A stretch of 64,000 bases of DNA from Zarea fungicola (Eukaryota > Ascomycota > Sordariomycetes > Hypocreales > Cordycipitaceae), in assembly GCA_900169235.1 (NCBI GenBank), contig FWCC01000343.1, positions 59,873 through 123,872 on the forward strand, given 5' to 3'. The stretch's first letter is position 1; every line of letters starts with the position of its first letter. Below are positions 33,052 through 64,000 of this stretch, piece by piece. The translations under genes were made by a program, and so were the position numbers. The notes below the pieces were generated by a model, which ran no database searches, had not been told where the DNA came from, and saw only the letters and a program-made list of their open reading frames with translations.

Positions 33052-34871
33052 TTAATTTTCAACAACGGCTTTCTCCACGTCAACCGAGCCGGTCTTCCTC
33101 TCAGCCACCAACGCCTCCTTCTTCTTAATCTCGAGAATATTATGCCACCCTAAGCCCCAGCAAAACGCAAGTGCCCCTGCCGCCAGGCCCACGCCCAAAT
33201 ACATGACGCGATCAATGCTCTTGGTATACGAGTCGAGCAGCGCCTGCAGCGCCGCCCCCGAGAGGCCGAGGCTGTGAACACTGCGGGCACCTGCGTTGAT
33301 GACAAGGTCTGGCTCTAGGCCGATCACGGATGTTTTCTTGCCCAGCAGGTCGCGGAGGCTGTTGTTGAAGATGACGTTGGCAATGATGAGCCACACAGAA
33401 CTGCCAAAAGTCTGCACGGTTAGGACGATGGCCATTGCCTGTGGCACTTGCCTCAACGGCACGAGGTTCTGCACCGCCATATATGGCTGTATTTTTTGGT
33501 TGTCTATATGTCAGCATGCACAAGCTTGATGGGTGGGGAGCAGTAATGTGGAAGCCTTACACTGCTGTTTCCAAACACGCTGCCAAAACCGTACAAAATC
33601 TGATAGCCGATCCAACGAGCCTTGGACGTCGTGGGAGAAAGTGTCGATAGGAGCCCGTATCCGACGGCGGCAATGCATGGCCCAGAGATTGCCATTGGAA
33701 GGTAGTAGCCCGTAGACTGAGTGAGACCGCCAGCCGTGACCATGGACACGAGCATGCCAAGCGTGGTCGGCAGCATGTGGACTCCGCTCTGCAGCGGGCT
33801 GTCATCGAGGACGGATTGGAAGTATATGGCGAGATAGAAATCGGCCACAAGCATGACGCCATAGTTGAAGAAGTTTGTTATCGCGGCCGAGCGGATGATG
33901 CCACTCCGCAGCATCGCCCACGGCACCATGGCGGCGTCGCCTTGGCGATACTCCCAGGCAAGGAACACTGCGAAACTGACAATCCCCCCTATTAGCAGAC
34001 CGATGACGACGGAGCTGTCCCATGCGAACTGGTTCCCGCCGTACTGGAGCCCCAACAGAAACATGAGCACCCCGCCGCTGATGAGCACGAAGCCAACAAG
34101 ATCTAGCGACTTGACGGCCGTGGCGAGAACGCTCCGCGCCGGCGGCTTCACTTCGGCCTCGGGAATCGTATTGAGGAGGAAGGCGGCGGTGATGATCGGA
34201 AACAGGCAGAGATTGAGGTAGAAGCACCACCGCCAAGTGGCGTGGCTGTTGGAGGTGAAGGCGCCGCCGATGAGAGGTCCGCCCGCGATGCCGAGCTGTC
34301 CAATACCCATGATGGCACCTAGAATGGCGGGTCGCTTGTGCAAGGGCAGCACGTTGGCAACAATGACCATCATGCCGGTGAAGAGGCCCGCAGAGCCAAT
34401 GCCGGCAACGGCGCGCCCCACGATGAACATGTCTGAGGAGCTGGCGGCGCCACTCAAAGCGGAGCCGATCTCGAAAATGAAGAAGAAGACCAGGAAAGAC
34501 CACCGGATGGGAAAAAAGCTATAGATCTTGCCGGTCATGGGCGTACAGGCGGCGCTGGTCAGCTGGTAGGCGCTGGCATACCAGCCAACGTCGGTGAGCG
34601 CGTTGAACCGGGTCGTGACGGCAGGTGTCACTGTGGACATGACAGCCATATCTAGGAAGACGAGAAAAAAAGACACGGCTATGGAAGCTAGGATGGAGAT
34701 GAGGGCGATGCCGGTTGGGTAGGCGTCATGCTCGTGGCCGGCCTTGCGCTCCGGGACAACGACGGCATCGTCCGAAGCAGCAGGTGATTGCGCCGCCGCC
34801 TTTTGAGACGGATCTGATTCGAACCCAGCCTCAACATCGTCGGGCTTGGATGGGGGCGTCGGTGGCGTCAT
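33052..34871 (-). CDS. MFS exporter, DHA2 14-TM drug:H+ antiporter family
   Basis: Two exons (34871-33561, 33486-33052) joined in phase 0 over a 74-bp intron give 581 residues. After a charged 60-residue N-terminus the protein is a series of hydrophobic helices typical of the 14-TM DHA2 group. Conserved features include the first-helix FLDMAVMSTVTPAV, the A-type loop with R in VGRAVAGIGSAGL, and the motif C-like GPLIGGAFTSN in helix 5. The C-terminal tail is cytosolic and charged. It sits between the cluster regulator and the monooxygenase with the same orientation, so it most likely exports the polyketide product or an intermediate; this is context inference. The ATG at 34871 is the first ATG of the frame. 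Confidence 0.92.
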
Positions 34872-35826
34872 GTTGGCTTCAATAGGCACTCGATTGACAA
34901 ATATCGAAAAGGAAAAGCAATTCAATCCAAATCAGATCAAGTCGAATCTGATCGCCAAGGTCGGAATCAACCACCGATCATATTTGACTACCGCCGGCAC
35001 TTTGAGTATTGAATATATATATACTATTCATTCTTGGGTGCTTTCTCCTATGCGTATCCATATTCGTCGATCCCATCTCATCAATCGGCCATCGGGCTTG
35101 GCGGAATATTAACCGGAGTTTGCGAGCGGAATATTCGGAATTTAGCCTTGGAACAGTCTCCACGGAATTTTCATCTCAACTTGGGACTAACAGGGGTACC
35201 ACGGAGAATTTCAAACCGGCACGGCCCGGCTGGAGCTCGAGCTGGAGACAAGTAACGAGGTAAGCGGAGCCACGCAGCGCCACGTAGCCACGACGCGTGT
35301 TTCATCGGGTCCTTGAGCAATTTACTAAAGTGATCGACATTTCAACATGGCAATCCCATTCCTCGGAGAACTATTGGGTGCTTGCTGTCGGAGTGCTCCT
35401 GTACGCTCCCCACTAAGTACGCCACGAAATTGTACAGTGCCAGACTCCTGATCACAGCCTCAGGGTAGCAGTGGCTGAACCGGGGAAAAGGTATGACAAG
35501 TAAAGCAAAGTATGTTTCAAACAATGTTGCAACAGCAGCTATCTATTACAGGACCAATAAAGGGTGGGGAGAAAAAAGAGTCAGATCTAGATTCCTTGTC
35601 TATTCACGTTTACAGTAACTATTTTCCTAATTCCGTCAAGGCATACCACGAACGCTACAGGCCGAGTATTTGGTGCATAATGCCCATGAAAATAGGCTGG
35701 CAAGCCTTCCTGTATATCGAAACTCACATTCTACGACTCCTAATTGCGTCTTAAGTGTTGAAAGAAATATATTTATAACCACATGCGGCTATGCCTCATA
35801 AGGAGTGGGGAGACTAATAAGAACCT
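34872..35826. other. intergenic, MFS promoter and FMO 3' flank
   Basis: No gene supported. A TATA-like run (tatatatata) occurs at 35014-35024, upstream of the MFS start on the minus strand. Confidence 0.45.
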
Positions 35827-37314
<1,488 letters not shown>

Positions 37315-38683
37315 GGGCACGGCGCAGTGAGGATGCGAACAAAAAATCTGGCAGTTGGTCACCTGGTCTCACTCCAGAATTGGAAAGTTATTGTGAATGT
37401 CAAACTGCTCAGCGTGGTAGATGAGCAATAACCTAACGAATATATGATACCCCGTTAGCCCGCTGAACGTCTTTAAGAGGGTTTTCTTTTTCAGTTAACA
37501 GTTATTATTGAAACAATATTTTTTCTGGTCCTGGCATACTTTCTAGACGTACCTGGATATCTTTTGTCGCCATCTTCATGGGTCCGATTTCACGTTGTCG
37601 ATCCGGACTTCGATGCTTCCGCCCGGAGGCTATTTCTCCGCGGGACTCCGTATCAGCCACATCCGGGTGTATGAGGGATGAAAATACACCAGATGAGGCT
37701 GAACTCTGTAGAAACCTAGCGCTTATGGCCATGCATTACCCAGAACCCATTAAGTTTCGCAGATCTGGGGTAGCCTGTAGGACAGAGAAGGAGTAAAGTG
37801 GCCACAGAGAAACTGGGTCGCTGATAATCACTTAGAACCAAGGCGGTGGGAATAAGCACTGGGAGGCTGAGCCAGCAACAAATCACTAACATGTAGGAAT
37901 AGAATACCTATCTTGCCCGGTTAGCTTTGGAGATCGTGTTCAACACTCAATCTACTCTTGGCCGCAGAGAGTAGTGATCAACACGGCCCGCCTACCTTAT
38001 CGTTGAATATCGGGCTGTGCTTCTGCTTCCACTGTCTTAAAGTAAGGAAGAATGCCGTCGAATGTTGATGTCTCGTCTATTGCAAAGGGCCAAGCTCGGT
38101 GTTTGTAAGGACGAGGGTGCTAGGTAACCACTCGGCCACAGAGACCATCAAAAGATCAAGTAATAACCAGCCGTGGCCGGATATCCCTAGCATCCAATAT
38201 ATACCTTCTAGGTCCCTAACAGTGTTCGTAGCGCCGGCCAATACGATGAATCAATTCCTGTTAAAGTCTATCGTAGATCGATAGAAATCCATGAATATTA
38301 TACTCAGCCCTGCGCTCGGAAATCTTGACTTTTTGATTTGGCCTGGAATCGTTACGGCCCGTTGGTGATTGGGTGCGTAGACTTTTATTTCCCTCCACCA
38401 AGCCGGAAACAGCTGCGACCCTGGTCGTCTGCTCAACAACAGTTCAATTAATAGACCATTATTTTAGGCTTAAGGGAACGAATTTGGATTGATTGGATTT
38501 ATTATAAAGCTAGATAATGCTATCAAAATAATTAATCTCGTCCTTTTACACGCTGGCCTGCTCTTTAGTCGCCGATTGATGGATAGTTGTTTTTGTAGAT
38601 ACAGTGGCCCAATATCGCACCTATCAACTCTGCGCGGTGCCTACAAACTATCAGCACTTGCTTCAATTCATAGTTTGTTTGCC
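37315..38683. other. intergenic, no gene seen
   Basis: Promoter of the monooxygenase and 3' flank of the DUF3237 gene. Only short frames without features. Confidence 0.5.
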
Positions 38684-39231: not shown

Positions 39232-39970
39232 TTTGACTTTGGGTTTATAGATCGTACTTGATTAAGGAAAACTAAATGTGGATGTGGTGGGAAGAACATA
39301 GAAAGCGATCTTTCAGGATTCCAAGTTCCCTAAATAGACCTGCCCGGTTACGATCGTCATGGTGGTGAAATTCTGGAGGCATCCGGATTCCACACTTATG
39401 CGCAACAGGGACAACGAGAGCTAGCATAATGCTAATGCATAAGCGCAAGGCTTGAAGGCTCTTTCCCATTGCACGCCATGAACTCAAGTCCGCGAATGCG
39501 ATTTCTAAGAAATCTGTCGTGGCGGAGAAATTCAAGTCCGGGGCTGAGACACTACTTCTTCCGGCCAGCTAGCCTGACTTGCAACTCCGGACCGGACTTC
39601 TAATTTTAGATCCGACTCAACGACTCCGTGTCCAGACGGCTCCTTCAACAAACTCGCGCGAGGCTTAGATGAGAGGAATTATTCGGACAGCGTCTTCAAC
39701 TGCCGCGACGATGGTTTGGCGCGGAGTTGGAAAGATGTGTCAAGATAGGATACACCGTCCCGCTTCCGCGGTCCGGTCGTCAATACGCGCATGCCAGCAA
39801 TGCAAGGCAGTCTTCCGTCGAACTTAAAATGGCCAAAGCAGTTGGATACTTTCGATCGATCTAGGGGTTCATACACATAAACAGCAATTAACGCTCCTTA
39901 TCACCGCTGACTTGCCCCATACTCTTGTCACGCAGTGGACCGATGCTTGCAAGGCAAGACCAACGTCAAA
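39232..39970. other. divergent promoter region between DUF3237 gene and NR-PKS
   Basis: A 739-bp region between divergent start codons, no coding content. It probably holds shared regulatory sites, none of which I can name with confidence. Confidence 0.55.
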
Positions 39971-42900
39971 ATGATTGAATCAAACTCTGGAGCAGGGGCC
40001 GACAGTGCCCCCTTTGATACGACCGTCTTCCTCTTCGGGTCGCACACTGGTGTTTTCACCAAGGAGTCTATGGAAAAACTCGTCAGACCACTCATGAATA
40101 GTTCACACCAAAGCTGGATTCTGGATACGACAGCCGGGTTACCAAGCTACCTGGAGGCTGCGGAGAAGAGAATCCCGGCGATTGGCCAATCCACCGCTGG
40201 ACACAAGCAACTCCGTGACCTCGATGCGTGGCTTCGTTATGGCGCAGACTCATGGGAAGATGACACGCCGTTGCCCAATATGATCGCCAGTCCGCTCCTG
40301 GTACTGACGCAAGTCACGCAGTATTGGCGTTACCTCGAGTTCCAGGTTGAAGAGATCGGGGATAGAGCAGCAGCGGTGGATGTTCAGAACCACATACTCA
40401 CACAATCATCATCAGCCGCTAAAGTTGAGTCTCTCGGTTACTGTGGCGGGCTACTGGCGGCACTGGCCGTGGCCAGCGCACACGACCGCACAGAATTCGA
40501 GCGGTATTCAGCCGTCGCGGTGCGTCTGGCAATGCTCCTCGGGGCGGTAGCAGATGCACGCGAGCGCCTAGACGTATCGCGCGGCAAAGGCGGTGCCCTG
40601 TCGCTAGCAATGGCATGGAACGGCGCTAGACAGGGCAACGATGTCCGGCAAATCATTGATAGCTTCGCTGGCGATGCTTACGTGGCTGTGCGAGCCGATA
40701 TAGAGCGGGCGACGGTCACGGCGTCGGAGGCCGTGATGCCGGCGCTGGCGGAGCAGCTGCGCGGGGTGGGTGCCATTGTGGTTGAGACAGGCGTCAGAGG
40801 CCGGATCCATGCGCCGGATGCCGAGCAAAGAGCATTCGGCGAGGCGCTCATTAATCTCTGCCACGATATGGAAGGGTTGCAGTATGCTACTACAGGAAAG
40901 CTAGCCATGCCCTCGTACAGTAACTGTGAGTCTGATGCCGGCCGTCCAATTGACGCCAGCAGCAAAGGCAGCAGCAGCGGGAGAATAACCGAGACGGTGG
41001 TACGCAGCATCATGCTACAGCAGTGCGACTGGTATGGCACCTTTTCGGCAGTGGTAACAGCCAGCGGACTCAAGAAGAAGCTGGTGACATTTGGAGGCGA
41101 GCGATGCGTTCCTCCCTCCATGTTGCGGTTCCTTAGTCGACAAGTTGTGCTCGTGGACGACCTGAATCTTGGAGTGACACAGACACAGTCGCAGAAGGAC
41201 GCATCGTCATCCTTGGAAAGAAACGGCACAGCAAACGAAGTTCACCATCTACCTCAGGTTGGCCGTCAAAATGAAGACCAAAACCAAAATCAAAGTCAAA
41301 ATCAAAATCAGAACACCAGCCATCCAAGCAGCGACGGCCACGACGAGAGCATCGCCGTCGTCGGCATGGCTATCAAGGCGCCGAACGCGGATGACATAGC
41401 CGAGTTTGCTGAGATGCTCAAGACAGGCAAGTCACAGCACGAGCTTGTCACGCCTGACCGCCTCATGTTCGACATGCTGTTCCGCAAGCCACCAAACCCA
41501 GACAAGGACCAGTACTACTGCAACTTCATGCGCGATACCGACGCATTTGACCACAAGTTCTTCAAGCGCAGTCCACGCGAAGCGGTGTCCATGGATCCCC
41601 AAGCCCGCCTGAGTCTACAATGCGCATACCAAGCTGTGGAGCAGTCGGGTTACTTCTCTGAGCTACAGCCGCGCGACGAGAGCGCCCGGAACTGGAAGAA
41701 CCACATTGGAATCTATGTTGGATGCTGTGGCTCCGACTATGAGCACAATGCCGGAAACCACGAGCCCAACGCCTTCACAGGGACCGGTGGGTTCCGAAGT
41801 TTTGTGTCTGGCCGCATCTCGCACTATTTTGGATGGACTGGCCCAAATATGCTCTATGACACGGCCTGTTCCTCGGCCGCAGTGGCAATCCACGCGGCCT
41901 GCCGTAGCATCCTCACTGGTGAGTCTTCGGCTGCCTTGGCTGGCGGCGCAAATGTCATGACTGGCATGCAATGGTTCCAGGACATGGCTGCCGGGAGCTT
42001 TCTCAGCCCCACGGGCCAATGCAAGCCCTTTGACGACAAGGCGGATGGCTATTGCCGTGGCGAGGCTATTGGCTTTGTTTACCTCAAGAAGATGTCGGAT
42101 GCTCGTCGTGATGGGAACAACATCCTGGCCGAAATCAAGAGCTCTCTCGTCTACCAGAATCAGAACACCACACCTCTATTCGTGCCCAACAGCCCATCGC
42201 TGTCACAATTGTTCCGAGATCTGCTAGTCAAGGCTGGGAAAAAGCCTCACGACATCTCTCTGGTCGAGGCTCACGGAACGGGCACACCAGTCGGAGATCC
42301 CGCGGAGTATGAGAGTGTCAGAAACGTCCTTGGCGGGCCATCCTCCGGGCGTACCAAGAAGCTGCTGCTTGGCTCCGTCAAGGGACATACCGGCCACGCA
42401 GAGGGCGCGTCGGGAATCGTTGCTCTCATCAAAGTCATCATGATGATGCAGGGCAATTTTATTCCACCCCAAGCCAGCTTCACCAAAATGAACCACCTCA
42501 TCGACAAGCGGCCCGATGACATGATTGAAGTGTCCACCACGCTTCGCCCATGGGATGATGAGCATAAGACGGCCCTGATCAACAATTACGGCGCGTCGGG
42601 CTCCAACGTCAGTCTAATTGTCGCACAACCGCCGTCAACAGCCCCTCGGGCCAAGATTATCAGAGAGAAGGATGAGTTTCCTTTCTGGATATCTGGCCTC
42701 GATGCTCGCGCCATTTCTGCCTACAGCGCCAAGTTGGCGTCCTACTGCCAGTCCTTGCCCAGCCAAGAACCCGATGCGTTGGCCGATATATCGTTTGAGC
42801 TAGCTCGCCGGTCAAACCGTGCTCTGCCGCAGGGCTATGTATTCAGCTGCCGCAACTTGCCCGAGTTGCAAGCGGCACTATCCAAGGCTTCTGCCAACCC

Positions 42901-45900
42901 GGCCATGGATGCTGCGTCCGCTGCAGCGATTGGAATCAAGCCAGTCAAAGCTCAGAGGCCCGTCATTTTGTGTTTTGGCGGCCAGGTCTCGTTGTCAGTT
43001 GGCCTTGACCGCAGCCTGTACGATGGTGTAGCTGTGCTCCGCCGCCATCTTGATGAATGCGACAGTGTCATAACCTCGTCGCTGGGCCTGCCATCCATCT
43101 ATCCCGGCATCTTCTCTAGAGAACCAGAACGTGACACGGTGAAGTTACAGACAATGTTATTCGCCATGCAATACGCATGCGCAAAGGCCTGGCTAGACTG
43201 TGGCCTCGAGACTCAAGTAGCAGCTGTTGTCGGTCACAGTTTTGGCGAAATCACAGCTCTTTGCGTGGCTGGAGCTCTGGGCCTCCGCGACACCTTGACC
43301 CTCGTCGCGGCGAGGGCCAGATTGGTGCGGGATTCGTGGGGACCAGACTCGGGTGCCATGTTGGCTGTCGAGACCGACGAGACGCTGGTGCAAGAGCTCT
43401 TACTGGAGGCCAATCGCACCACGGGCTCGGATGGATCGGCAAGCATCGCATGCTACAATGGCCCGCGCAGCTTTACCCTCGCTGGATCTACAGTCGCAGT
43501 GGATTGCGTGCAGCAGGTACTTGCATTGTCGTCATCGTCGAAGTTCTCAGGTGTCAAGAGTAAGCGTCTTAGTGTGTCCAACGCTTTCCACTCTGCACTT
43601 GTCGATAAACTGGTGGATGATCTTAAGCAGGTGGGTAAATCGCTAGTCTTCCGCGAGCCTGTCATCCCAGTCGAATTCGCGAGGCAGGAAGGCAATTATC
43701 CATTGGATTGGACCTTTGTTCACTCGCATATGCGCGAGCCAGTCTTCTTTCATCACGCTCTGCAGCGCCTCACAAAGAAACACCCACAGGCCGTCTTCCT
43801 CGAGGCCGGTTCCAACTCTACCATTACTATAATGGCATCGCGAGCCTTGTCCCAAGGTAGTAGCCCCCAAGCTGGCCAAGACTACCACTTCCAGCCCGTC
43901 GCCATTACCAACACGGATACTGGCTTCAAGGGCTTGGCCAATGTTACCACCGATCTATGGCGACAAGGTTTGCGCGTCATGTTCTGGCCCTATCATCGTG
44001 AGCAGGCGCATGAGTATGCACCGCTTCTGCTACCGCCCTACCAGTTCGCCAACGGACCAACCTCCCGCCACTGGATGCCGATGGTGTCACCGCACGAGGC
44101 AGTACAGAAAGCTGCCGAGGCCCTTTTAGAGAAGAATGGCCATCAATTACAGCTAGGCCCAGCTGCCGCCGAAGTCAAGACGCAACTCAATCTGTTTGAC
44201 TTTGTTGGGTGGCTCACGGACAAGACTAAAAAACGGGCGCGTTTCCGCATCAACACAGAGTCAGACAAGTACAAGGCGCTCGTCCTGAGCCACGTCGTGG
44301 CAGAGACATCATCCGCATGCCCAGACACACTCCTGTGCGATGTAGCCATTCAGGCTCTCTTCGGCCTTCAGTCAGAATGGAAGATGGATGAGACGCAGCC
44401 GGTTGTGCGAGATATGGTCTCCGCGACGCCCATCGGCGTCGATGCGTCCCGCATTCTCTATGTCGAGTTTTCTGCGCTAAACAGCAGCCTTACGCAATGG
44501 GCTGCACACTTCTTCAGCATCGACAAAGGCGCAGCTGTAGAACAGCCACAAACACACGCCGAGGCCTGCTTCGACATGCGTACAGCCACCGACGCCGCCC
44601 ACGTTCAGGAATTTTCACGGTTCGGGCGCCTCGTCAGCAACGTTCGGTGCCGGGAGATTCTTGATCTCAGCCTCTCTGACGAGGGTGTGGAGGTGCTGCA
44701 AGGCCGCCAGCTCTACCGCGCTCTTGCCCCGGTCGTCGACTACGGAGATATATACCGCGGAGTTCGCCACGTTGTGGGACGCGGCACCGAGTGTGTCGGG
44801 CGCGTCAAGCTCGACCGCCAGTACAGGCAGAGTGAGACATGGCTCGATGTGCCGTTGACTGAGACCTTTTTCCAGGTTGGAGGAATCTGGTTGAATGAAA
44901 TGAGGGATAGGCAGGCTGAGGACATGTACTTGGCTACTGGATTCGAAGTGGCCATGCGTTCACCCAAACTCACGGCCTCCGATCGGGCTGCCGCTGACGT
45001 TTGGCATGTTTATGCCCGTTTCACGGCTCAGGACAGCGATGCTGCTACAGACTATGATTATACGGCGGATCTTTTTGTCTTCAATGCAGACTCGGGGGCG
45101 CTCTCCGAAGTCATCCTCGGTGTACAGTATAAACGCCTTGCCAAGGCAACTGTAGCCGAGATTCTCGTCGCCGGTGGGAGCAAAAACTCTTTGATGGCTA
45201 GAGTCCAGGCTCCAGCAGCGGTTGCTTCCACTTCTTTCTCAGCCGGCGTCGCGAACACTGCACATGTCCAGCCCAATGAGCGCAAGTCCACAAGGGCAGA
45301 TAAGCAGAAGCCGAAGCAGAAGTCAGACGAGGAGCAGGCAGTGGCGGCCGAGTTTGAGGCTGACATAAAGCCAGCACGGCAAGACTTGACAGAAGAAGTG
45401 CGAAATCTTGTTGTCAACATATCGGGCATCGAGGCAGACGAGCTGGGGCTCGATACTCAGATGGCTGATGTGGGCATCGACTCGCTGATGGGTATGGAAC
45501 TTACTCGCGAGGTTGAAAGGGTCTTTGGATGCACTCTTGACCACGCCAAGCAATTAGAGGCGACAAGTTTGCGTAAATTTATCACCCTTGTTGAGGATGC
45601 AATGTTTGGAGCAGGGACCGATGTTGCTCTTCCCACCTCAGCTGTCAAGGAGAAAAAGGTCGAAAAGAAGAAGGCCAAAGGGCTAGATGCAAACGAAAGC
45701 GTACCAGGCCACCGCGATATGACTGAAGATGTGCGGAACCTTATTATCAGCGTGTCCGGCGTCGAGGCTGAGGAGCTAGAGCTGGATACCCAGATGGCTG
45801 ACGTGGGTATCGACTCACTAATGGGCATGGAGCTCACTCGCGAGGTTGAAAGGGCTTTCGGGTGTACCCTTGACCATGCCAAGCAGCTAGAAGCTACGAG

Positions 45901-48613
45901 TTTGCGCAAATTTGTCGTCCTCGTTGAAGAAGCAATGTTCGGAGGGACTGTCCCTCGACCATCTGCCATTCATGACGTCGAAAGTCTCGACGGGGATACC
46001 TCACAAGACGATTCCTCCGACGATTTCCAGCTTACTCCTTCTTCTCTGGATACAAGTCCTCCATCGAGTGTAACACGCGAACCCAAAGCAATGACAGCCG
46101 CGGCACCAACCACGTCCCCAGCCACCAGCAACCTCAGTCTATCGCCCTCTATCGTGCTCGAGTCATTCGCCGAGATCAAGATGGCGGCAGATAAGCTTCT
46201 GTGCGAATACGGGATTGCGGGCACAGAAAAGACAGTCATGGCTGGCAACAACCGGCTGTGCACGGCACTCATTGTTGAGGCACTGGACGAGCTGGGCTGC
46301 AACCTCGGCACCGCCAAAGCCGGACAGCCCGTTGAGCGCATCCCATTTGTGCCCAAGCAAAGCCGTCTGATGCAGTGGATATGGGAGTTTCTGGAGCGCG
46401 ATGCCCGCCTGGTGGACATTGATGCCGCCAGCGGTAAGCTCATTCGCACACACATAACTGCGCCGTCCAAGACGAGTGACGCCATCGTCGACGAGCAAAT
46501 TAAGCAGTACCCCGAATTTGCGACACCCAGCCGCCTGGCTTACTTTGCTGGAAAGAAAGTTGCGGGTGTGCTGAGCGGCAAGACGGATGGGCTCCGTGTG
46601 CTATTCGGCAGCCCCGAGGGCAGGGAGTTGATGGAATCCCACGAATGCGACCAGCCGTGGAACCGCATGCATTATACGCAGATCCGGGACGTCATCAAGG
46701 GTATCGCAGAGCGGGCTCGTCTTGGAGCGCAGCAGGAGACGCTCAAGATACTCGAGATGGGTGCCGGCGTGGGCGCTATAACGCAGGTCCTGGCTCCCTT
46801 TCTTGCATCCCTAGGTGTTCCTGTTGAGTTCACCGTTACCGACCCTTCGTCAACTCTGGTCGCCGGTGCCCGCCGTCGCTGGGGTGAGAAGTACCCCTTT
46901 ATGCGCTTCGCCGTCCATGACCTAGAGAAAGCACCTTCCGCTAAGCTACTTGACCAGCACATCCTCGTCGGCAGCGCGGTCCACGCCACGCGCAGCCTCC
47001 TTGACACCCTGGTCCACATGCGTCAAGCCCTGCGGCCAGATGGTGTCCTTATGATGTTGGAGATGACGGAGGGCGTGCCTTTCGCCAATCTCGTATTTGG
47101 CTCGCTCGAGAGATGGTGGCTCTTTGATGACGGACGCACGGCCGCCCTCGTGCCGGCTGAACACTGGGAGCGCAAGTTACACGATGCCGGCTTCGGCCAC
47201 GTCGACTGGACCGATGGAGACTTGCCAGAGCATGCATACCACAAAGTCATTGTGGCACTGGCCAGCGGAGTCCAAGGGCCACGGCTGCCAAAGCCTGAGC
47301 CTGAGCTCGCCTTCTTCAATATCGACAAGGGCAACGACCTGGCGGCTCGCACGGCAACAGCTGAGGCACTTGTGGCCAAGTACTCTGACGCGTGGGCCAC
47401 ACCTGCTCTCCAAGTCAAGCAGGCAAAGCTCGAGAAGGGCGACAGCAGCACTGGAACCAGCAGCCCGGCACTCCGGCTCGGGGACGTCGTTGTGGTGACG
47501 GGTGGAACAGGTAGCCTTGGCTGCCACATCGTGCAGTCGCTGGCCGAGAACCCAAATGTGGCCCAAGTTGTCTGCCTGAACCGGCACAGCGCAGTCGCTG
47601 CCGATAAGCGGCAGCAAGATGCCCTGCGCATGCGCGGCATCGCCCTGACTCCCGGTGCCCGTGCCAAGGTCCGCGCCATCGCCACAGATATGGACCAGCC
47701 GGCACTGGGACTGCCACCGCACGAGCACACGTGGCTCTCGCAGCATGCCACACATGTCGTGCATAATGCCTGGCCCATGAGCGGGACGCGGCCACTCAGC
47801 GCCTTCACGCCGTCACTGCGAACGATGCGAAATCTTCTAGACCTGGCGCGCGACGTGGCCCTCCGGAGCGACGACCGTCACGGCCACCGCCGGCTCGCCT
47901 TCCTCTTCGTCTCATCCATTGGCGCTGTGGGTTGCTCGGCCGGACCGCTCGTGCTCGAGGAGCGACTGCCGCTGTCCGCCGCGCTGCCCAACGGCTACGG
48001 CGAGGCCAAGTGGGTGTGCGAGCGGTTGCTGGACGAGACGCTGCACAAGTTTCCCCTGCTCTTCCGCGCGGCCGTGGTGCGTCCCGGCCAGATTGCCGGG
48101 TCGAGCACGAGCGGCTTCTGGAACCCCGACGAGCACTTTGCCTTCATGGTCAAGTCGGCGCAGAGCCTGCGAGTGTGGCCGGAGCTCAGTGGCACGCTGC
48201 TGTGGACGCCGGCCGACCACTGCGGCGGCATCGTGGCGGACCTAGCCCTCAACCCGGCCGCCGAGGGTCCGGTATATCACATGGATAATCCCGTGGGCCA
48301 GCCGTGGCGGGACATTAACCCCGTGCTGGCCCGGCTCCTAGGTGTTCCCGCTGGCGGGATCCTGCCGTTCAGAGACTGGATTAAGAGGGTGAGGACGTCG
48401 CCGCTTGTGCCGGAGACGGAGAATCCCACTGCGAGAAATGGAATGGCAGACTTTTTAGAAAAGAATTTTGAGAGGATGAGCTGTGGAGGGCTGGTGCTTG
48501 ATACGCAGAAGGCGAAGGAGCATAGTGCTACGATGGCGGCGGAAGGCCCGGTATCTGAGGAGGTTGTAGGCAGGTATGTCGAAGCATGGAAGCGGATGGG
48601 CTACTTGGATTAA
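39971..48613 (+). CDS. non-reducing polyketide synthase (SAT-KS-AT-PT-ACP-ACP-MT-R)
   Basis: A single uninterrupted frame of 2880 residues from the ATG at 39971 (the frame opens upstream at a GTG). Sites seen: SAT Cys158 in GYCGG; a Gln/Asn-rich linker near 433-448; KS Cys633 in DTACSS, with EAHGTGT and KGHTGHAEG; malonyl-AT Ser1090 in GHSFGE; product-template His1441 (SHVVAETSSACP) with Glu1631 where an Asp is usual (ETFFQVGG); two ACPs with Ser1838 and Ser1949 (both VGIDSLMG); C-methyltransferase LEMGAGVGA near 2263; reductive release domain with TGGTGSLG near 2510 and Tyr2676/Lys2680. This plan makes C-methylated aromatic aldehydes from a loaded starter. Together with the release-less HR-PKS it fits a collaborative pair. 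The absence of introns in 8.6 kb contrasts with the HR-PKS. Confidence 0.97.
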   Translation: MIESNSGAGADSAPFDTTVFLFGSHTGVFTKESMEKLVRPLMNSSHQSWILDTTAGLPSYLEAAEKRIPAIGQSTAGHKQLRDLDAWLRYGADSWEDDTPLPNMIASPLLVLTQVTQYWRYLEFQVEEIGDRAAAVDVQNHILTQSSSAAKVESLGYCGGLLAALAVASAHDRTEFERYSAVAVRLAMLLGAVADARERLDVSRGKGGALSLAMAWNGARQGNDVRQIIDSFAGDAYVAVRADIERATVTASEAVMPALAEQLRGVGAIVVETGVRGRIHAPDAEQRAFGEALINLCHDMEGLQYATTGKLAMPSYSNCESDAGRPIDASSKGSSSGRITETVVRSIMLQQCDWYGTFSAVVTASGLKKKLVTFGGERCVPPSMLRFLSRQVVLVDDLNLGVTQTQSQKDASSSLERNGTANEVHHLPQVGRQNEDQNQNQSQNQNQNTSHPSSDGHDESIAVVGMAIKAPNADDIAEFAEMLKTGKSQHELVTPDRLMFDMLFRKPPNPDKDQYYCNFMRDTDAFDHKFFKRSPREAVSMDPQARLSLQCAYQAVEQSGYFSELQPRDESARNWKNHIGIYVGCCGSDYEHNAGNHEPNAFTGTGGFRSFVSGRISHYFGWTGPNMLYDTACSSAAVAIHAACRSILTGESSAALAGGANVMTGMQWFQDMAAGSFLSPTGQCKPFDDKADGYCRGEAIGFVYLKKMSDARRDGNNILAEIKSSLVYQNQNTTPLFVPNSPSLSQLFRDLLVKAGKKPHDISLVEAHGTGTPVGDPAEYESVRNVLGGPSSGRTKKLLLGSVKGHTGHAEGASGIVALIKVIMMMQGNFIPPQASFTKMNHLIDKRPDDMIEVSTTLRPWDDEHKTALINNYGASGSNVSLIVAQPPSTAPRAKIIREKDEFPFWISGLDARAISAYSAKLASYCQSLPSQEPDALADISFELARRSNRALPQGYVFSCRNLPELQAALSKASANPAMDAASAAAIGIKPVKAQRPVILCFGGQVSLSVGLDRSLYDGVAVLRRHLDECDSVITSSLGLPSIYPGIFSREPERDTVKLQTMLFAMQYACAKAWLDCGLETQVAAVVGHSFGEITALCVAGALGLRDTLTLVAARARLVRDSWGPDSGAMLAVETDETLVQELLLEANRTTGSDGSASIACYNGPRSFTLAGSTVAVDCVQQVLALSSSSKFSGVKSKRLSVSNAFHSALVDKLVDDLKQVGKSLVFREPVIPVEFARQEGNYPLDWTFVHSHMREPVFFHHALQRLTKKHPQAVFLEAGSNSTITIMASRALSQGSSPQAGQDYHFQPVAITNTDTGFKGLANVTTDLWRQGLRVMFWPYHREQAHEYAPLLLPPYQFANGPTSRHWMPMVSPHEAVQKAAEALLEKNGHQLQLGPAAAEVKTQLNLFDFVGWLTDKTKKRARFRINTESDKYKALVLSHVVAETSSACPDTLLCDVAIQALFGLQSEWKMDETQPVVRDMVSATPIGVDASRILYVEFSALNSSLTQWAAHFFSIDKGAAVEQPQTHAEACFDMRTATDAAHVQEFSRFGRLVSNVRCREILDLSLSDEGVEVLQGRQLYRALAPVVDYGDIYRGVRHVVGRGTECVGRVKLDRQYRQSETWLDVPLTETFFQVGGIWLNEMRDRQAEDMYLATGFEVAMRSPKLTASDRAAADVWHVYARFTAQDSDAATDYDYTADLFVFNADSGALSEVILGVQYKRLAKATVAEILVAGGSKNSLMARVQAPAAVASTSFSAGVANTAHVQPNERKSTRADKQKPKQKSDEEQAVAAEFEADIKPARQDLTEEVRNLVVNISGIEADELGLDTQMADVGIDSLMGMELTREVERVFGCTLDHAKQLEATSLRKFITLVEDAMFGAGTDVALPTSAVKEKKVEKKKAKGLDANESVPGHRDMTEDVRNLIISVSGVEAEELELDTQMADVGIDSLMGMELTREVERAFGCTLDHAKQLEATSLRKFVVLVEEAMFGGTVPRPSAIHDVESLDGDTSQDDSSDDFQLTPSSLDTSPPSSVTREPKAMTAAAPTTSPATSNLSLSPSIVLESFAEIKMAADKLLCEYGIAGTEKTVMAGNNRLCTALIVEALDELGCNLGTAKAGQPVERIPFVPKQSRLMQWIWEFLERDARLVDIDAASGKLIRTHITAPSKTSDAIVDEQIKQYPEFATPSRLAYFAGKKVAGVLSGKTDGLRVLFGSPEGRELMESHECDQPWNRMHYTQIRDVIKGIAERARLGAQQETLKILEMGAGVGAITQVLAPFLASLGVPVEFTVTDPSSTLVAGARRRWGEKYPFMRFAVHDLEKAPSAKLLDQHILVGSAVHATRSLLDTLVHMRQALRPDGVLMMLEMTEGVPFANLVFGSLERWWLFDDGRTAALVPAEHWERKLHDAGFGHVDWTDGDLPEHAYHKVIVALASGVQGPRLPKPEPELAFFNIDKGNDLAARTATAEALVAKYSDAWATPALQVKQAKLEKGDSSTGTSSPALRLGDVVVVTGGTGSLGCHIVQSLAENPNVAQVVCLNRHSAVAADKRQQDALRMRGIALTPGARAKVRAIATDMDQPALGLPPHEHTWLSQHATHVVHNAWPMSGTRPLSAFTPSLRTMRNLLDLARDVALRSDDRHGHRRLAFLFVSSIGAVGCSAGPLVLEERLPLSAALPNGYGEAKWVCERLLDETLHKFPLLFRAAVVRPGQIAGSSTSGFWNPDEHFAFMVKSAQSLRVWPELSGTLLWTPADHCGGIVADLALNPAAEGPVYHMDNPVGQPWRDINPVLARLLGVPAGGILPFRDWIKRVRTSPLVPETENPTARNGMADFLEKNFERMSCGGLVLDTQKAKEHSATMAAEGPVSEEVVGRYVEAWKRMGYLD
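45383..45941 (+). repeat. tandem duplication encoding the two ACP domains
   Basis: The units 45383-45608 and 45716-45941 are offset by exactly 333 bp (111 codons). Over 76 aligned residues there are 13 differences, nearly all conservative, and the stretch around each active Ser is identical. Lys/Glu-rich linkers separate them. Confidence 0.9.
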
Positions 48614-49240: not shown

Positions 49241-50005
49241 CTACTTCTTCATCTTTAATCCCACTCTCTTCCCAACAAATTCACTCTGCAACCCCTTCTC
49301 GAAATCGGTAGCAATAAAATCTAAGGGATCCTCCAAGGTCGTAGCATAACCTCCGGCGAGACCGAAGACGTTCAAATAACCCCCGATTAGCGGTACCCAT
49401 TTGAGAGTGTCTCGCCATTCTGGAGGGGAATCGGCTCTGGCGATCACGTTGGCCGCCAGGCAGTCCGCCGGCGCGGGGATTCGAGGCTCGCTGTGCTTGG
49501 GGCTCATTTGATTGGCGCAAAACAACGACCAGGCAATGTTGTCCTCGTCTTGCTTCTGGATCAGAGCCAAGTTCTCCCTGTGCTCGGGAAACATGGGCAT
49601 GTAGTCGCCAATGAGGCGGGCCGGGACGGCGCTGTCCAGCATGGGGAAGCCCGACATGAGCCACGCGCGGATGGCAGGCCCGCGGCGCTCCTCGCGAGCT
49701 TCCACAATGGCGGCGACAATGGCGGCGAACATTGCGTTGTACTCGCCCGTCTTGGATCGGCCGAACATTTGCGCGACACCGGCGGCGTGAAAGACGGCAT
49801 CGCAGTCGTGGGTGAGGAGGGCCTCCTTTAGCGCGGCCTTGTCTGTGGCCGATCCGGCAACCACATCGGCCAGGACAGCTCGGCTCTCTGGTGAGAGTTT
49901 GCTCGGCGTGCGAACAAAAGCTACGACGGTGTGGCCGTGCTTGATCAGGGCAGGCAGGGCGCGGCTGCCGACATTGCCAGTGGCACCAAGTAAGAGCACC
50001 TTCAT
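49241..50005 (-). CDS. NmrA-like/atypical SDR NAD(P)-binding protein
   Basis: An intronless frame of 254 residues. It starts with the dinucleotide-binding motif LLLGATGNVGSRALPALIKHG, characteristic of NmrA-like and isoflavone-reductase-like atypical short-chain reductases, followed by FVRTPSKL, which contacts the NADP phosphate in this group. The classical SDR YxxxK pair is not evident; HAAGVAQMFG marks the central strand. It is convergent with the NR-PKS, separated by 627 bp, and close to the second regulator, so a tailoring reductase role is plausible. A redox-sensing role like that of NmrA is the alternative. Confidence 0.85.
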   Translation of the reverse strand: MKVLLLGATGNVGSRALPALIKHGHTVVAFVRTPSKLSPESRAVLADVVAGSATDKAALKEALLTHDCDAVFHAAGVAQMFGRSKTGEYNAMFAAIVAAIVEAREERRGPAIRAWLMSGFPMLDSAVPARLIGDYMPMFPEHRENLALIQKQDEDNIAWSLFCANQMSPKHSEPRIPAPADCLAANVIARADSPPEWRDTLKWVPLIGGYLNVFGLAGGYATTLEDPLDFIATDFEKGLQSEFVGKRVGLKMKK

Positions 50006-50489
50006 GATTATTTCATTCGGTTGTCGTTTGAAGAAATTGGTAGTACCGGATTGAAATATTGTATATAGAAGCTAGGTTACAAATAGCTGAGGGTATGGTT
50101 TTTAACTCTTTAATCAGAAATACGTAAGATGAGTATTATTACATGAGCTGTCAAATCCCCGTGGAATTTACGGAAAATAGCCCGCAGCAGGGATTCGTCC
50201 GAAAGGCTGGATGGCGTAGTACCGAATTCCTGCCTAAGCCTCATCGAGATTGAGTGAGCACCACGCACTGTAACCCAACTTGGCTGCCCCTAAAGCACCT
50301 TGGAATAGGCCGTCTGGATTAAATATAGGGGCAAATTACTGGGTTTGTCCACGTGTTTAAATGTTCAGTCGTTGTCCTCGGCAAATCTTAGGAGTCTAAA
50401 TACAGTGCCAGATCTATGGGCTGAGTGCCCCGTGCAGTTCAGACCTCAAATTCTAATCCTTAAAACTTCAATTTCGATCCGCTCACACT
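50006..50489. other. intergenic, no gene seen
   Basis: Promoter of the NmrA-like gene and 3' flank of the second Zn2Cys6 gene. Confidence 0.5.
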
Positions 50490-60493: not shown

Positions 60494-61155
60494 ATGCCCG
60501 CTCTCTTCGCCACGGCCTTCTTTGTGCTTGCTATCGGCTGCGGAATCAACCCTGCTTCCGCAGCGCATGCCGGTTTCCACGTGCAGTTCCCATGGATGAC
60601 CCGAGGTCCAAACCCTAGCACCCGGCTAGAGCTAAACGGGTACAACCCTTTCTGCGGTATCTTGATTATTATTTTTCCGGCATCGCAGTAGTGTATGCTA
60701 ACAACCAGAAGGGGAGATTGTGCATGACCCCCAAGAATTTACCCGTCACTCGCGTACTTTCCTGTCCTTCTCCGGCCATTCTGGAGACCTTGTGACGGTC
60801 CGTTACACCCAAAATCGAGTGCCAAGGAATACAGATGACTTTCCCTACATGATCATACAGGATGTGCCCATCCAGCCTTCGGGGCAGCTATGTGTGAACG
60901 TCACCATACCATTTGAAACAAAGCTCAACGAGATGGGAGTCATGTACTTTGAGGCGAGGGATCCGAAGACAGGTAGTGTGAAACACCACGTCAGTTCCCC
61001 CGTCTCACCTGCAAATAGAGTTGTTACTAATCAAACGACAGTGTTCCGACGTTCAAATGACTGACGAAGATGCTCTTCCAGAGGAACATCCGGCGATGTG
61101 TGCGGCCAATAACGACACGCTTATCCCAATGCCGGATGAGTACCTGTTGAAATAG
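60494..61155 (+). CDS. small secreted protein, possible X325/BIM1-like (LPMO-related) copper protein
   Basis: Three exons (60494-60656, 60709-60989, 61042-61155) joined over two 52-bp introns give 185 residues. A signal peptide (MPALFATAFFVLAIGCGINPASAA) would be cleaved to leave an N-terminal His in HAGFHVQFPWMTRGP. An exposed N-terminal His followed by a hydrophobic strand and P-x-x-RG resembles the X325/BIM1 family, which binds copper with that His. Later QLCVNVTIPF and the CSDVQM segment restored by splicing fit the family's disulphide pattern. The usual Cys-Gly-Gly and a GPI site are missing, so it is a distant member or a different secreted family. Confidence 0.55.
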
Positions 61156-61866: not shown

Positions 61867-62163
61867 TTACTGAGCAGCGTCAGCCTCTTTGGCAGAAACG
61901 CTGTACTTGTGGCGCTTCTCAATAGCGTCAGCCTCTTTGGCAGAAACATTGTACTTGTGGCGCTTCTCAACAGCATCGGCGTCAGCCTCTTTGGCAGAAA
62001 CGCTGTACTTGTGACGCTTCTCAACAGCGTCAAAGTGATTTGGCTCATTAATTGACGCCTCGGCACGTCCAGCCAAGTCAGCAGCGGTGATTGCTGCAGC
62101 CTGGGCCGGGAGGATGTTTAGGCCGAGACTAGCAAGGCTGAGTAGGGCAGTGGTGAAATGCAT
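61867..62163 (-). CDS. dikaritin-type RiPP precursor with Kex2-processed repeats
   Basis: An intronless frame of 98 residues. Residues 1-22 form a signal peptide (ending ILPAQA-A). A short spacer leads to three repeats, each preceded by the Kex2 dibasic site KR at 49-50, 67-68 and 83-84. The repeat is HKYSVSAKEADA, HKYNVSAKEADA and again HKYSVSAKEADA, with linkers DAVE and IE. Known dikaritin precursors (ustiloxin, phomopsin, asperipin) have the same plan: signal peptide, Kex2 sites and a short core built on Tyr, often Tyr-x-Val/Ile-x. Tyr-Ser-Val-Ser and Tyr-Asn-Val-Ser fit that core. Divergent UstYa and nearby tyrosinase support the assignment. An alternative is a mating-pheromone-like or other Kex2-processed peptide without cyclisation. 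The exact core boundary is uncertain. Confidence 0.85.
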   Translation of the reverse strand: MHFTTALLSLASLGLNILPAQAAAITAADLAGRAEASINEPNHFDAVEKRHKYSVSAKEADADAVEKRHKYNVSAKEADAIEKRHKYSVSAKEADAAQ

Positions 62164-62788
62164 TGTTGAACTTTAGACGCAGCTGTGTGGTTCGTTAGGT
62201 AGAATGGTTTGTTGTTGAGATGTTGCTTTTGCTATTGGGCCTCTCCAGAGTATATATACACCAAGGTCCAAAGGAGAATGAGCAGGGTCAGCTTCAAGAA
62301 TCGACTCAAGGTGCCGGCTCGGATTCTAGACTGGAACAGTCGGCCTGAGGTGGAGCATCTGCATTACCCTTCTCTGTGAAGATTAAGGTTAGCTTGTCAG
62401 TTTAGAATGTCAGAAGTAGGAGGGATGGTATGGCGTGATAACCCACCATACAACCAATGTACGGAGTTTTGTAAACTAGCCATCTAATATATAAGCTTAA
62501 TCCTGGATAAAGCCACAAATATGAACCCGAAGGCTCATGTCTGGATAGTATGTGGATCTATGAACTGCCGGGCATACGCGTTTTGAAGATACTCAGCTTA
62601 CCAATACTCCACATCATCCATAAAAAACTTTTAATAGAGCATCTGGTGAATATAAAGGCCATTGAAACAGTTGGGGCTCCGAAGTCCCTGCTCCAGGCAT
62701 CACTGCAATTCCACATAAGTAAGCGCGGCTATGGGCAGCGTTGGGTCAAACACTACTACTCCGTAGTCAACTCTGAAAGCTGAAGAAA
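62164..62788. promoter_or_regulatory. shared divergent promoter of precursor and UstYa-like gene
   Basis: A 625-bp spacer between two divergent start codons, suggesting co-regulation. No coding content is visible. Confidence 0.5.
62251..62260 (-). promoter_or_regulatory. TATA box of the RiPP precursor gene
   Basis: A tatatataca run about 90 bp upstream of the precursor ATG on the minus strand, the spacing expected for a fungal TATA element plus short leader. Confidence 0.45.
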
Positions 62789-63511
62789 ATGCTCTCTCCC
62801 TCCGCCCCTCCCAACAAATCAATGTACCAGCAAAGCAAGATGTTACCCAAGTCCCTGAAAGCTGGACTTCGCGGCCACTCCATTGGCCTGCTTGTAGCGC
62901 TGGGCATATGCCTCGCCCTGAATTTAGGCGCGTTCATCTTCTCTCTAAGCATCTTAACTCGTGGAACGCAGAATTACAGTGCGTTACATCCCATCTTCTC
63001 CTCGACGCCTTGCTAAATAACAGTAGCCTACCTCGAGGGGGATCGACCTCGCGAGCTCCCCCTAACGATCCGCACCATCCAGACTGCCTTCCACGACGAC
63101 CCCGATCACTACGGGATGGAAGGCATTAACGCCACGGCCGAATGGAATGCAATTCGCCCTCCAGGCAGTGGCTTCGTTTTTCTAGGAGATGAGTACTATG
63201 CATTTGGTGTATCAATGTGGCACCAAATGCACTGCCTTAACCATATACGCTCCGTCCTGGTCAACGGGGACGACGGGTCAGATCATACGGCACACTGTTT
63301 CCATTACTTGCGGCAGGGAATTCTTTGCGCTGCCGATCTAACCTTGGAGTCAGGCGGCACAAGCATGAAGCTGGCTAATGGGGATACGGTCGCTACAGGC
63401 GTAGGAACTGTGCATACCTGCCGGGACTGGAAGCAGGTCCATGATTGGATGGAGAACCAACATAAGGATTGGACACCGGATATGCACCAGAGGTTCAAAG
63501 AATCTAGTTAA
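62789..63511 (+). CDS. UstYa-like oxidase (DUF3328)
   Basis: Two exons (62789-62978, 63024-63511) over a 45-bp intron give 225 residues. A single transmembrane helix (SIGLLVALGICLALNLGAFIF) follows a basic N-terminus, typical for this membrane-bound family. Two HxxHC motifs, the family signature, are intact: WHQMHC in the FGVSMWHQMHCLNHIR segment and HTAHC in DHTAHCFHYLRQGILC. UstYa-type proteins oxidatively cyclise Kex2-released peptides by linking the Tyr ring to a neighbouring residue, in the secretory pathway. The gene is divergent from the repeat precursor and convergent with the tyrosinase, giving a typical dikaritin triad. Only one UstYa gene is seen; ustiloxin uses two, so another may lie beyond the window edge. 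Confidence 0.92.
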
Positions 63512-63624
63512 CATCAATACAATGGGCAATCGTGTATAGGGTAGAGTTAGACAGTTATCTTTTCGGTAATACTAATTGAACTACCAGATATTGATTGATT
63601 TGTACCAGTCTAGTCCAGCACCAT

Positions 63625-64000
63625 TCACTCCTCATCCGAATATCGATAACATAGAGGCCATTGCTCGGTATCAAACACCGCCCTCGGCGCTACAGGCACA
63701 CTCATAACGCCGAATGGCATTAAGCGATCCGCTTGCGCCGTAAGATCATTGTGTGGGTCACTCATGTTGGGACTGCTAGAAAAGGCGGCGAAATTGGATG
63801 GATCGCGGCGCTGCCACTTCAACTCCCCATGTTAGTGACATTGGACTCCGCCTGAATACTCCACACTGAGAGCATGTATGAATTAGGCAAGTAGGCTTAC
63901 CTTACTCCACAACTTGTCAAGTTGCGCATGATGTAGCCAAAACAGCGGGTCATTAGGCGTGAAACTAGGTGCCATGCCTTGTGTTACAAATGAAGAAACG
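63625..64000 (-). CDS. tyrosinase (UstQ-like), 3' end only
   Basis: Two exons are visible: 64000-63901 (continuing beyond the window) and 63822-63625. They join in phase 0 over a 78-bp intron (GTAAGC donor). The first contains the copper-B site of tyrosinases, PNDPLFWLHHAQLDKLW, with the adjacent His pair and the HxxxD spacing. The second encodes the C-terminal tail ending CYRYSDEE and the stop. Catalytic copper-A His residues would lie to the right. Tyrosinases of the UstQ type hydroxylate the core Tyr in dikaritin pathways, and the location beside a UstYa gene and Tyr-bearing precursor supports this. It is cut by the window edge, so length and N-terminus are unknown. Confidence 0.85.

What the first reader, a model, noticed from the sequence alone, without database searches (positions are those of the whole stretch)
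61867..64000. Probable new dikaritin-type RiPP cluster at the window edge
A Kex2-repeat precursor, an intact UstYa/DUF3328 oxidase with both HxxHC motifs and a tyrosinase end lie within 2.2 kb. This triad matches the ustiloxin/phomopsin type, but the core HKY(S/N)VS differs from the YAIG, YVIPID and FYYTGY cores I know, so a new cyclic peptide family is likely.
Basis: partly seen in the sequence, partly recalled or inferred. Interest (0 to 1): 0.93.

Follow-up and report, generated by a model that had tools for sequence, protein, structure and literature searches.

The report
Fungal cyclic-peptide gene cluster, contig-end fragment
A fungal contig end carries a gene for a repeated, cut-out peptide next to two copper oxidases of the kind that turn such peptides into rings; this is a further member of a large, already described class, with a peptide sequence not seen in the collections searched.

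Summary
At 61867-62163 (-) lies a 98-aa Kex2-repeat precursor with cores HKYSVS/HKYNVS/HKYSVS. A UstYa/DUF3328 gene with both HxxHC motifs diverges from it, and a tyrosinase 3' end with the CuB signature points towards it. The window ends where the contig ends, so the rest of the tyrosinase and the right flank are unread; the missing half was not found elsewhere in the assembly. Best reading: a dikaritin/ust-RiPS cluster, with Kex2 cutting, Tyr oxidation and a Tyr-to-Val crosslink. The chemistry is inferred.

The core looks new at sequence level: two protein searches (54-451 aa) gave no match, and a control showed that kept cores would have scored. But core diversity is the rule in this class (7878 KEPs, 838 types, 2560 singletons; Umemura 2020), so a new core does not make a new family. 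Four other repeat precursors lie beside UstYa genes in this genome.

Less ordinary: this UstYa belongs to a clade reaching Basidiomycota and a chytrid, and its genera include all six non-ascomycete genera of published KEP type G-5/P-1. Verdict: new member of a known kind.

The parts
61867..62163 (-). Kex2-repeat (KEP) precursor gene, 98 aa, intronless, hydrophobic N-terminus resembling a signal peptide, three KR-HKY(S/N)VS-AKEADA units
   Evidence: no protein relative
61996..62013 (-). core 1, HKYSVS (KR at 62014-62019)
61942..61959 (-). core 2, HKYNVS (KR at 61960-61965)
61894..61911 (-). core 3, HKYSVS (KR at 61912-61917); followed by AKEADAAQ-stop, no closing KR
62164..62839 (.). shared divergent intergenic region between precursor and UstYa, with a TATATATA run about 90 bp before the precursor start
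   Evidence: sequence read; regulatory role is inference
62840..62978 (+). UstYa exon 1 from the Met that matches the start of most close relatives (an upstream in-frame ATG is at 62789)
   Evidence: lengths
63027..63511 (+). UstYa exon 2 (intron 62979-63026, acceptor set by homology)
63221..63235 (+). first HxxHC motif (HQMHC)
   Evidence: lies in helix 66-83 of the model
63284..63298 (+). second HxxHC motif (HTAHC)
   Evidence: lies in helix 90-104 of the model
63901..64000 (-). tyrosinase penultimate exon with CuB signature DPLFWLHHAQLDKLW, cut by the contig end
63625..63822 (-). tyrosinase last exon with stop codon (intron 63823-63900)

Best explanation
A dikaritin-type (ust-RiPS) ribosomal cyclic-peptide cluster, cut by the contig end. 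Shown from sequence: a repeat precursor with Kex2 sites, an intact divergent UstYa gene and a tyrosinase 3' end. Inferred by homology: the precursor enters the ER/Golgi, Kex2 cuts after each KR to free peptides that start H-K-Y, and a carboxypeptidase removes the trailing KR. The tyrosinase acts on the core Tyr as UstQ/PhomQ do, and the binuclear-copper UstYa oxidase joins the Tyr ring to the beta-carbon of a residue two places on. In YAIG/YVIP that residue is Ile; here it would be Val (Y-S-V, Y-N-V), and the residue that varies between repeats (S/N) is the same place that varies between ustiloxins A and B (V/A). Whether HK is kept or trimmed is open. Expected product: two related small rings of unknown activity.
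For: Anatomy. Pfam UstYa 74.2 bits against cut-off 25 (scored on the first, 225-aa gene model) and Tyrosinase 35.2 bits against 22.6. The tyrosinase tail aligns to the last residues of a solved catechol oxidase (4j3p, query 13-94 to chain 301-382 of 383, E 1.7e-5) and to solved tyrosinases (the six top-scoring of 30 matched sequences are hemocyanins, which share the copper signature). Both HxxHC motifs are intact; in an AlphaFold model of the exon-2 frame (mean pLDDT 79.9, the other four models 65.5 to 47.9) each lies in one of two neighbouring helices, as described for the copper enzyme CctR (PMC12435403, passages). UstQ, UstYa and UstYb together are needed for the first cyclic ustiloxin intermediate (PMC6514808, passages). 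DUF3328 genes peak next to KEP genes, and where DUF3328 is present tyrosinase genes also accumulate two genes from the KEP (PMC7329392 section 7). Clustering by chance is about 4e-6.
Against: Only the last 98 residues of the tyrosinase are readable, so copper site A and the start are unseen, and no orphan front half was found in the assembly. Only three repeats, the last without a closing KR. The core motif is Y-x-V, not the Y-x-I of the ustiloxin/phomopsin precursors. Over all KEPs tyrosinase genes are not significantly enriched (341 counts for 7878 KEPs; about 20 counts at the two-gene position). No S41 peptidase, separate methyltransferase gene or cluster transporter was recognised to the left, but one search tested only 10 of the 94 frames of 90 codons or more listed (a few more). 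No expression or mass data. Signal peptide judged by hydropathy only.
Confidence: 0.8

Rival explanations
1. Asperipin-type variant: precursor and UstYa work together, while the tyrosinase is a bystander or broken gene; UstYa alone makes the Tyr crosslink.
For: Asperipin-2a is made with a single DUF3328 enzyme, and its four-gene cluster has no tyrosinase (PMC6514808 passages); the tyrosinase here is convergent, seen only in part, and its front half is absent from the assembly. The contigs of the four other KEP-UstYa pairs in this genome (C163, C230, C312, C360) carry no tyrosinase hit.
Against: The tail is open, spliced in frame and ends like an intact short catechol oxidase; tyrosinase genes are rare here (7 loci).
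Confidence: 0.13
2. A linear secreted peptide or pheromone-like KEP whose neighbour UstYa modifies something else.
For: Many KEPs give linear peptides (PMC7329392 sections; PMC9769878 passages); spacers are rich in EA/DA.
Against: Genes annotated as mating factors or pheromones lack DUF3328 neighbours with three exceptions (abstract); no W-x-W motif; the XA dipeptides stand before KR, not after it, so Ste13-type trimming of the N-terminus is not expected (Ste13 rule).
Confidence: 0.05
3. A decaying or chance assembly of unrelated genes.
For: Few repeats, no closing KR, contig end.
Against: All three frames intact as far as read; joint chance about 4e-6; UstYa is 74-80% identical to the ten best relatives.
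Confidence: 0.02

Closest known systems
Ustiloxin B and phomopsin clusters (dikaritins with tyrosinase)
   Same: signal-peptide-like, Kex2-repeat precursor, UstYa-type oxidase, tyrosinase; Tyr in the core with a beta-branched residue two places on
   Different: core HKY(S/N)VS instead of YAIG/YVIG/YVIP; 3 repeats instead of 16 (ustiloxin) or 8 (phomopsin); one UstYa seen instead of 2 or 5; tyrosinase 2 genes away instead of 7-8; peptidase, methyltransferase and others not seen
Asperipin-2a cluster
   Same: precursor plus a single adjacent UstYa-type oxidase
   Different: a tyrosinase end is present here; no reductase or transporter seen; different core (FYYTGY there)
KEP type G-5/P-1 (#24) of Umemura 2020 (PMC7329392 Table 2)
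   Same: the UstYa relatives' genera include all 6 non-ascomycete genera of this type, and 12 of its 19 genera if Plenodomus is counted as Leptosphaeria (synonymy recalled); that type's repeats hold Y and several D
   Different: 7 of its 19 genera are not in my list; 19 of its 35 members have no DUF3328 neighbour; its sequence logo and member list could not be read (figure and supplement); no protein matched this precursor, so identity of type is not shown
Four other KEP-UstYa pairs in the same genome (C163, C230, C312, C360)
   Same: Kex2-repeat frame about 0.9-1.3 kb from the nearest UstYa hit
   Different: unrelated repeats: NPDYIAYGAKRAENAAA, TVKQNGDILYNNGAGWGKR, KEENNRGGIPWKREDDDIYKR, SSVYKSYMADRSVPEEKR; no tyrosinase hit on their contigs

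Membership tests
Dikaritin / ust-RiPS | three or more repeats of at least 8 residues set off by Kex2 sites (Umemura criterion) | tested here: met
   three units of 14-16 residues after KR; the last ends at the stop codon, not at a Kex2 site
Dikaritin / ust-RiPS | N-terminal signal peptide | tested here: inconclusive
   hydrophobic stretch (best 10-residue mean hydropathy 2.1) and an A-Q-A-type site by eye; no trained predictor was available
Dikaritin / ust-RiPS | adjacent DUF3328/UstYa oxidase with HxxHC(x)nHxxHC | tested here: met
Dikaritin / ust-RiPS | tyrosine in the repeated core | tested here: met
   Y in 3 of 3 cores
Ustiloxin/phomopsin-type dikaritin | tyrosinase (UstQ/PhomQ role) in the cluster | tested here: inconclusive
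   3' end with CuB signature present; the rest lies beyond the contig end
Ustiloxin/phomopsin-type dikaritin | Y-x-I-x core of KEP type G-10 | tested here: not met
   cores read Y-S-V-S / Y-N-V-S; G-10 motif as described
Dikaritin (Ding set) | S41 peptidase and zinc-finger regulator (with or without methyltransferase) in the cluster | tested here: inconclusive
   none recognised among the 10 frames tested to the left apart from genes that look like a separate polyketide cluster; right flank not in the assembly
Dikaritin | crosslinked (cyclic) product | not testable with these tools
   needs mass spectrometry
KEP type G-5/P-1 (#24) | precursor belongs to the same BLAST type | tested here: inconclusive
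   genus overlap strong but indirect; no precursor homologue at E up to 1 or up to 10
alpha-type mating pheromone precursor | W-x-W-type pheromone repeat, XA/XP after KR, no DUF3328 neighbour | tested here: not met
   no W in the precursor, H-K follows KR in 3 of 3, DUF3328 adjacent; criteria

The most novel reading that the evidence does not exclude
The precursor, with a new N-terminally extended HKY-x-V-S core, belongs to an ancient or horizontally spread cyclic-peptide system whose dedicated UstYa is found in Ascomycota, Basidiomycota and a chytrid (Blyttiomyces, nested among mushroom sequences in the tree). The enzyme would be conserved (about 49-80% identity for most named members) while the peptide that it closes is swapped between lineages.
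Probability: 0.2. Interest if true: 0.6.

Novelty: new member of a known kind. Interest (0 to 1): 0.36.

Why it matters
It adds one well-formed precursor with an unreported core to a class of fungal cyclic peptides, some of which are mycotoxins and most of which have no known product or role. The sharpest use is the conserved UstYa clade: if its partners differ in core between phyla, it would test directly whether the oxidase reads the spacer or the core. Otherwise the find is ordinary: such pairs occur several times in this one genome, and 1758 KEPs with DUF3328 neighbours are in one published survey.

Tried and rejected
Extending the contig: not possible, C157 ends at the window end. Looking for the other tyrosinase half: each of the 6 other tyrosinase loci reported has its own C-terminal part, and no orphan front half was reported even at E up to 10; the last 121 bases matched no other place. 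Precursor homologues: none in 1587 candidates (54-171 aa by the tool's length rule) at E up to 1 and none in 1207 candidates (142-451 aa by the same rule) at E up to 10. To see whether that silence means anything I scored 20 copies with the cores kept and 20 to 80% of the other places replaced at random: 20 of 20 scored E below 1e-5 at the same database size, and the best of 200 shuffles scored E 9e5. So annotated precursors with these cores in the same spacing would have passed the scoring. The control had no insertions or deletions and did not test the word step; unannotated genes or other cores would be missed. Precursor paralogues in the own genome: none. Solved relatives of UstYa: none by sequence or fold (0 of 46 matches at E up to 0.001); no conclusion drawn, the model is a monomer fragment without its transmembrane helix. 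Literature: no paper in the held PMC library contains HKYSVS, HKYNVS, KRHKYS or HKYSV; other searches; supplementary tables, where such cores would be listed, and subscription papers could not be searched. BIM1-like secreted protein at 60.5-61.2 kb considered as a cluster member: match below cut-off (13 of 27 bits), not claimed. Organism: not named and not determined.

The tree used 43 of the 83 UstYa matches plus the query; the 40 left out were mostly short or without an organism name. The 17 relatives of the alignment and the 39 were picked by me.

Full report
What is there. The window lies at G000:C157:59873-123872 of an unnamed 43.1 Mb genome in 456 contigs, and the contig ends at the window's last base. 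At 61867-62163 on the minus strand an intronless frame encodes 98 residues: a hydrophobic start (MHFTTALLSLASLGLNILPAQA), a short pro-region, then three units KR-HKYSVS-AKEADADAVE, KR-HKYNVS-AKEADAIE and KR-HKYSVS-AKEADAAQ-stop. TRF recognises three units of 48-54 bp. A degenerate pattern for the core occurs three times in the whole genome, all here, and the precursor has no paralogue there.

UstYa. Divergent from it, on the plus strand, a two-exon gene encodes a UstYa/DUF3328 protein (Pfam PF11807, 74.2 bits against a cut-off of 25, scored on the first gene model). That first model gave one residue too many at the splice; 11 of 17 aligned relatives read Y-T-Y-L there, which sets the intron at 62979-63026. 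Nine of the ten best relatives are 206-208 aa, which favours the Met at 62840 and a 207-aa protein. HQMHC and HTAHC are intact. In a model of the exon-2 frame (63017-63508, whose first three residues are intron by the later gene model) built on 40 sequences (mean pLDDT 79.9; the other four models 65.5 to 47.9) each motif lies in one of two neighbouring helices. This agrees with what was reported for the copper hydroxylase CctR, where HxxHC motifs on paired helices hold two coppers and mutation of these residues abolished activity (PMC12435403, passages seen). No related solved structure was found.

Tyrosinase. On the minus strand an exon (63901-64000) with DPLFWLHHAQLDKLW and a last exon (63625-63822) join in frame to 98 residues. 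Pfam tyrosinase covers profile positions 180-209 (35.2 bits, cut-off 22.6). Of 30 matched solved sequences the six best are hemocyanins; the tail also aligns with tyrosinases 5z0m and 1wx2 and, up to the end, with residues 301-382 of 383 of the catechol oxidase 4j3p. So the 3' end is genuine and ends as an intact short enzyme does. The front half is not in the assembly: the 6 other tyrosinase loci carry their own C-terminal part, and the contig's last 121 bases match nothing else.

More than chance. The genome has 55 UstYa exon hits in 40 gene groups and 7 tyrosinase loci. Under uniform scatter a random site would have both within 2 and 3 kb with probability about 4e-6 (which used 39 and 8). 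This is rough but leaves little room for coincidence.

How ordinary it is. I scanned 43 loci plus the window (318 kb with overlaps; 26 of 40 UstYa groups represented) for frames with repeats after dibasic sites. Besides the window's precursor, four further repeat precursors stand about 0.9-1.3 kb from the nearest UstYa hit: on C163 (NPDYIAYGAKRAENAAA units) and C230 (TVKQNGDILYNNGAGWGKR; frame cut by the locus end) by the strict scan, and on C312 (KEENNRGGIPWKREDDDIYKR, with a hydrophobic start) and C360 (SSVYKSYMADRSVPEEKR) by the relaxed one (sequences). Only the C312 frame shows a hydrophobic start in the frame itself; for C163 a signal-like stretch lies upstream before a stop, as if spliced. 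The scans also rang on other things: a NACHT/ankyrin-type protein at 11331-14096, antisense frames of the repeats, low-complexity frames, and one two-repeat frame on C167 (L005 134-553) that I did not examine. Repeats after dibasic sites alone are therefore not evidence. One other UstYa has a tyrosinase near it (C43: UstYa 18097-18549, tyrosinase 24646); there the scan found no convincing precursor in the 27.4 kb read, the first 14 kb of that contig being unread.

Published background. Umemura 2020 (PMC7329392; abstract and sections 3, 6, 7, 9, 13 read) lists 7878 KEPs in 1345 of 1461 strains, 838 types and 2560 without homologues; 1758 (22%) have DUF3328 neighbours. Tyrosinase genes are not significantly enriched near KEPs overall (341 counts), but accumulate (about 20 counts) two genes away when DUF3328 is present. 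A review (PMC6514808, passages) states that ustQ, ustYa and ustYb are needed for the first cyclic ustiloxin intermediate, that asperipin-2a uses one such oxidase, and that dikaritins were named from 27 clusters. The 2022 review (PMC9233826, passages) gives the Tyr-Ile crosslink and the Kex2 route. A lichen survey (PMC12048977, section 22) recalls that DUF3328 also occurs in non-RiPP pathways, so UstYa alone does not define the class. PMC6339444, PMC6941272 and PMC9769878 were seen in passages only.

Is the core new? Two protein searches found nothing: 1587 candidates, none at E up to 1; 1207 candidates, none at E up to 10. A control showed that three kept cores with 80% of the remaining positions drawn at random would score E 5e-9 to 1.4e-6 (5 of 5), and 20 of 20 control copies passed. 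No text in the paper library holds the core. The core is therefore absent from what I could search, but unannotated small genes and the supplementary tables of KEP surveys were out of reach.

The UstYa clade. 83 proteins matched, the best at 80% in Penicillium and 79% in Cordyceps, while the nearest paralogues in the same genome are 32-41% identical over partial stretches. In a tree of 44 rows rooted on Pleurotus the 30 ascomycete rows, the query counted among them, form a starred group (99/94); the query's place inside is unresolved. Calocera and Dacryopinax are next, and both Blyttiomyces (chytrid) sequences fall among mushroom sequences (90/88 and 85/83, not starred; the program warned of long branches for Hohenbuehelia, Dendrothele, Tetrapyrgos and Pleurotus). 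The genera listed for KEP type G-5/P-1 in Table 2 of Umemura 2020 include six non-ascomycetes (Dendrothele, Bondarzewia, Pluteus, Heterobasidion, Psilocybe, Blyttiomyces); all six are in my UstYa list. Among the 61 non-ascomycete genera that I counted by hand in that table, 7 are in my list, so 6 of 6 by chance would be about 1.3e-7; this was noticed afterwards and is not a planned test. Seven ascomycete genera of that type (Botryotinia, Botrytis, Coleophoma, Rutstroemia, Sclerotinia, Phialemoniopsis, Parastagonospora) are not in my list, and 19 of its 35 members have no DUF3328 neighbour. I infer that this UstYa clade often accompanies G-5/P-1 precursors. Yet the window's precursor matched no protein at all, so either its repeats have diverged, or the type's members lie outside the length range, or the partner was exchanged.

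Mechanism. Shown: gene content, motifs, orientation. Inferred: secretion, Kex2 cutting, Tyr oxidation and a Tyr-Val ether or similar crosslink by analogy with Y-x-I cores. The variable S/N place equals the A/V place that separates ustiloxins B and A (core letters). Not known: fate of HK, whether UstYa alone suffices, product activity. Nothing here shows toxicity.

Verdict. Observation confirmed; class assignment supported; the claim of a new cyclic peptide family goes beyond the evidence. New member of a known kind, interest 0.36.

Noticed in passing
window 39911-48610 (+), with 30314-37368 (-) and 49244-50071 (-): An uninterrupted 2900-aa polyketide synthase frame (SAT, KS, AT, two phosphopantetheine sites, methyltransferase, terminal NAD-binding reductase-type domain) with an FAD oxidoreductase exon, an MFS transporter and a fungal transcription factor nearby: it looks like a separate non-reducing polyketide cluster.
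   Followed up: partly
window 11331-14096 (-): NACHT/NPHP3_N protein with ankyrin matches and 11 DUF7104 stretches (96-bp tandem units, about 10 copies, about 76% alike): a fungal NOD-like receptor with a repeat tail.
   Followed up: partly
window 60495-61155 (+): Secreted-looking protein with a weak BIM1-like copper domain match (13 bits, cut-off 27), next to the cluster; a copper link to UstYa and tyrosinase is only a thought.
   Followed up: partly
L028 6868-7377, L003 3109-3354, L030 3525-3836, L037 5023-5193: Four further Kex2-repeat precursors beside UstYa genes in the same genome, with unrelated repeats.
   Followed up: partly
L042/L043 (C43:18097-18549 and 24646-25254): UstYa and a tyrosinase about 6 kb apart, without a recognised repeat precursor in the 27.4 kb read: perhaps a second dikaritin-like or a single-core cluster.
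   Followed up: partly
L005 134-553 (-): Frame with two DEDDKWST-type repeats after dibasic sites near a UstYa on C167, hydrophobic start.
   Followed up: no
UstYa relatives P0062, P0073: Chytrid Blyttiomyces helicus UstYa sequences fall among mushroom sequences in the tree, suggesting horizontal transfer or contamination; support is moderate.
   Followed up: no
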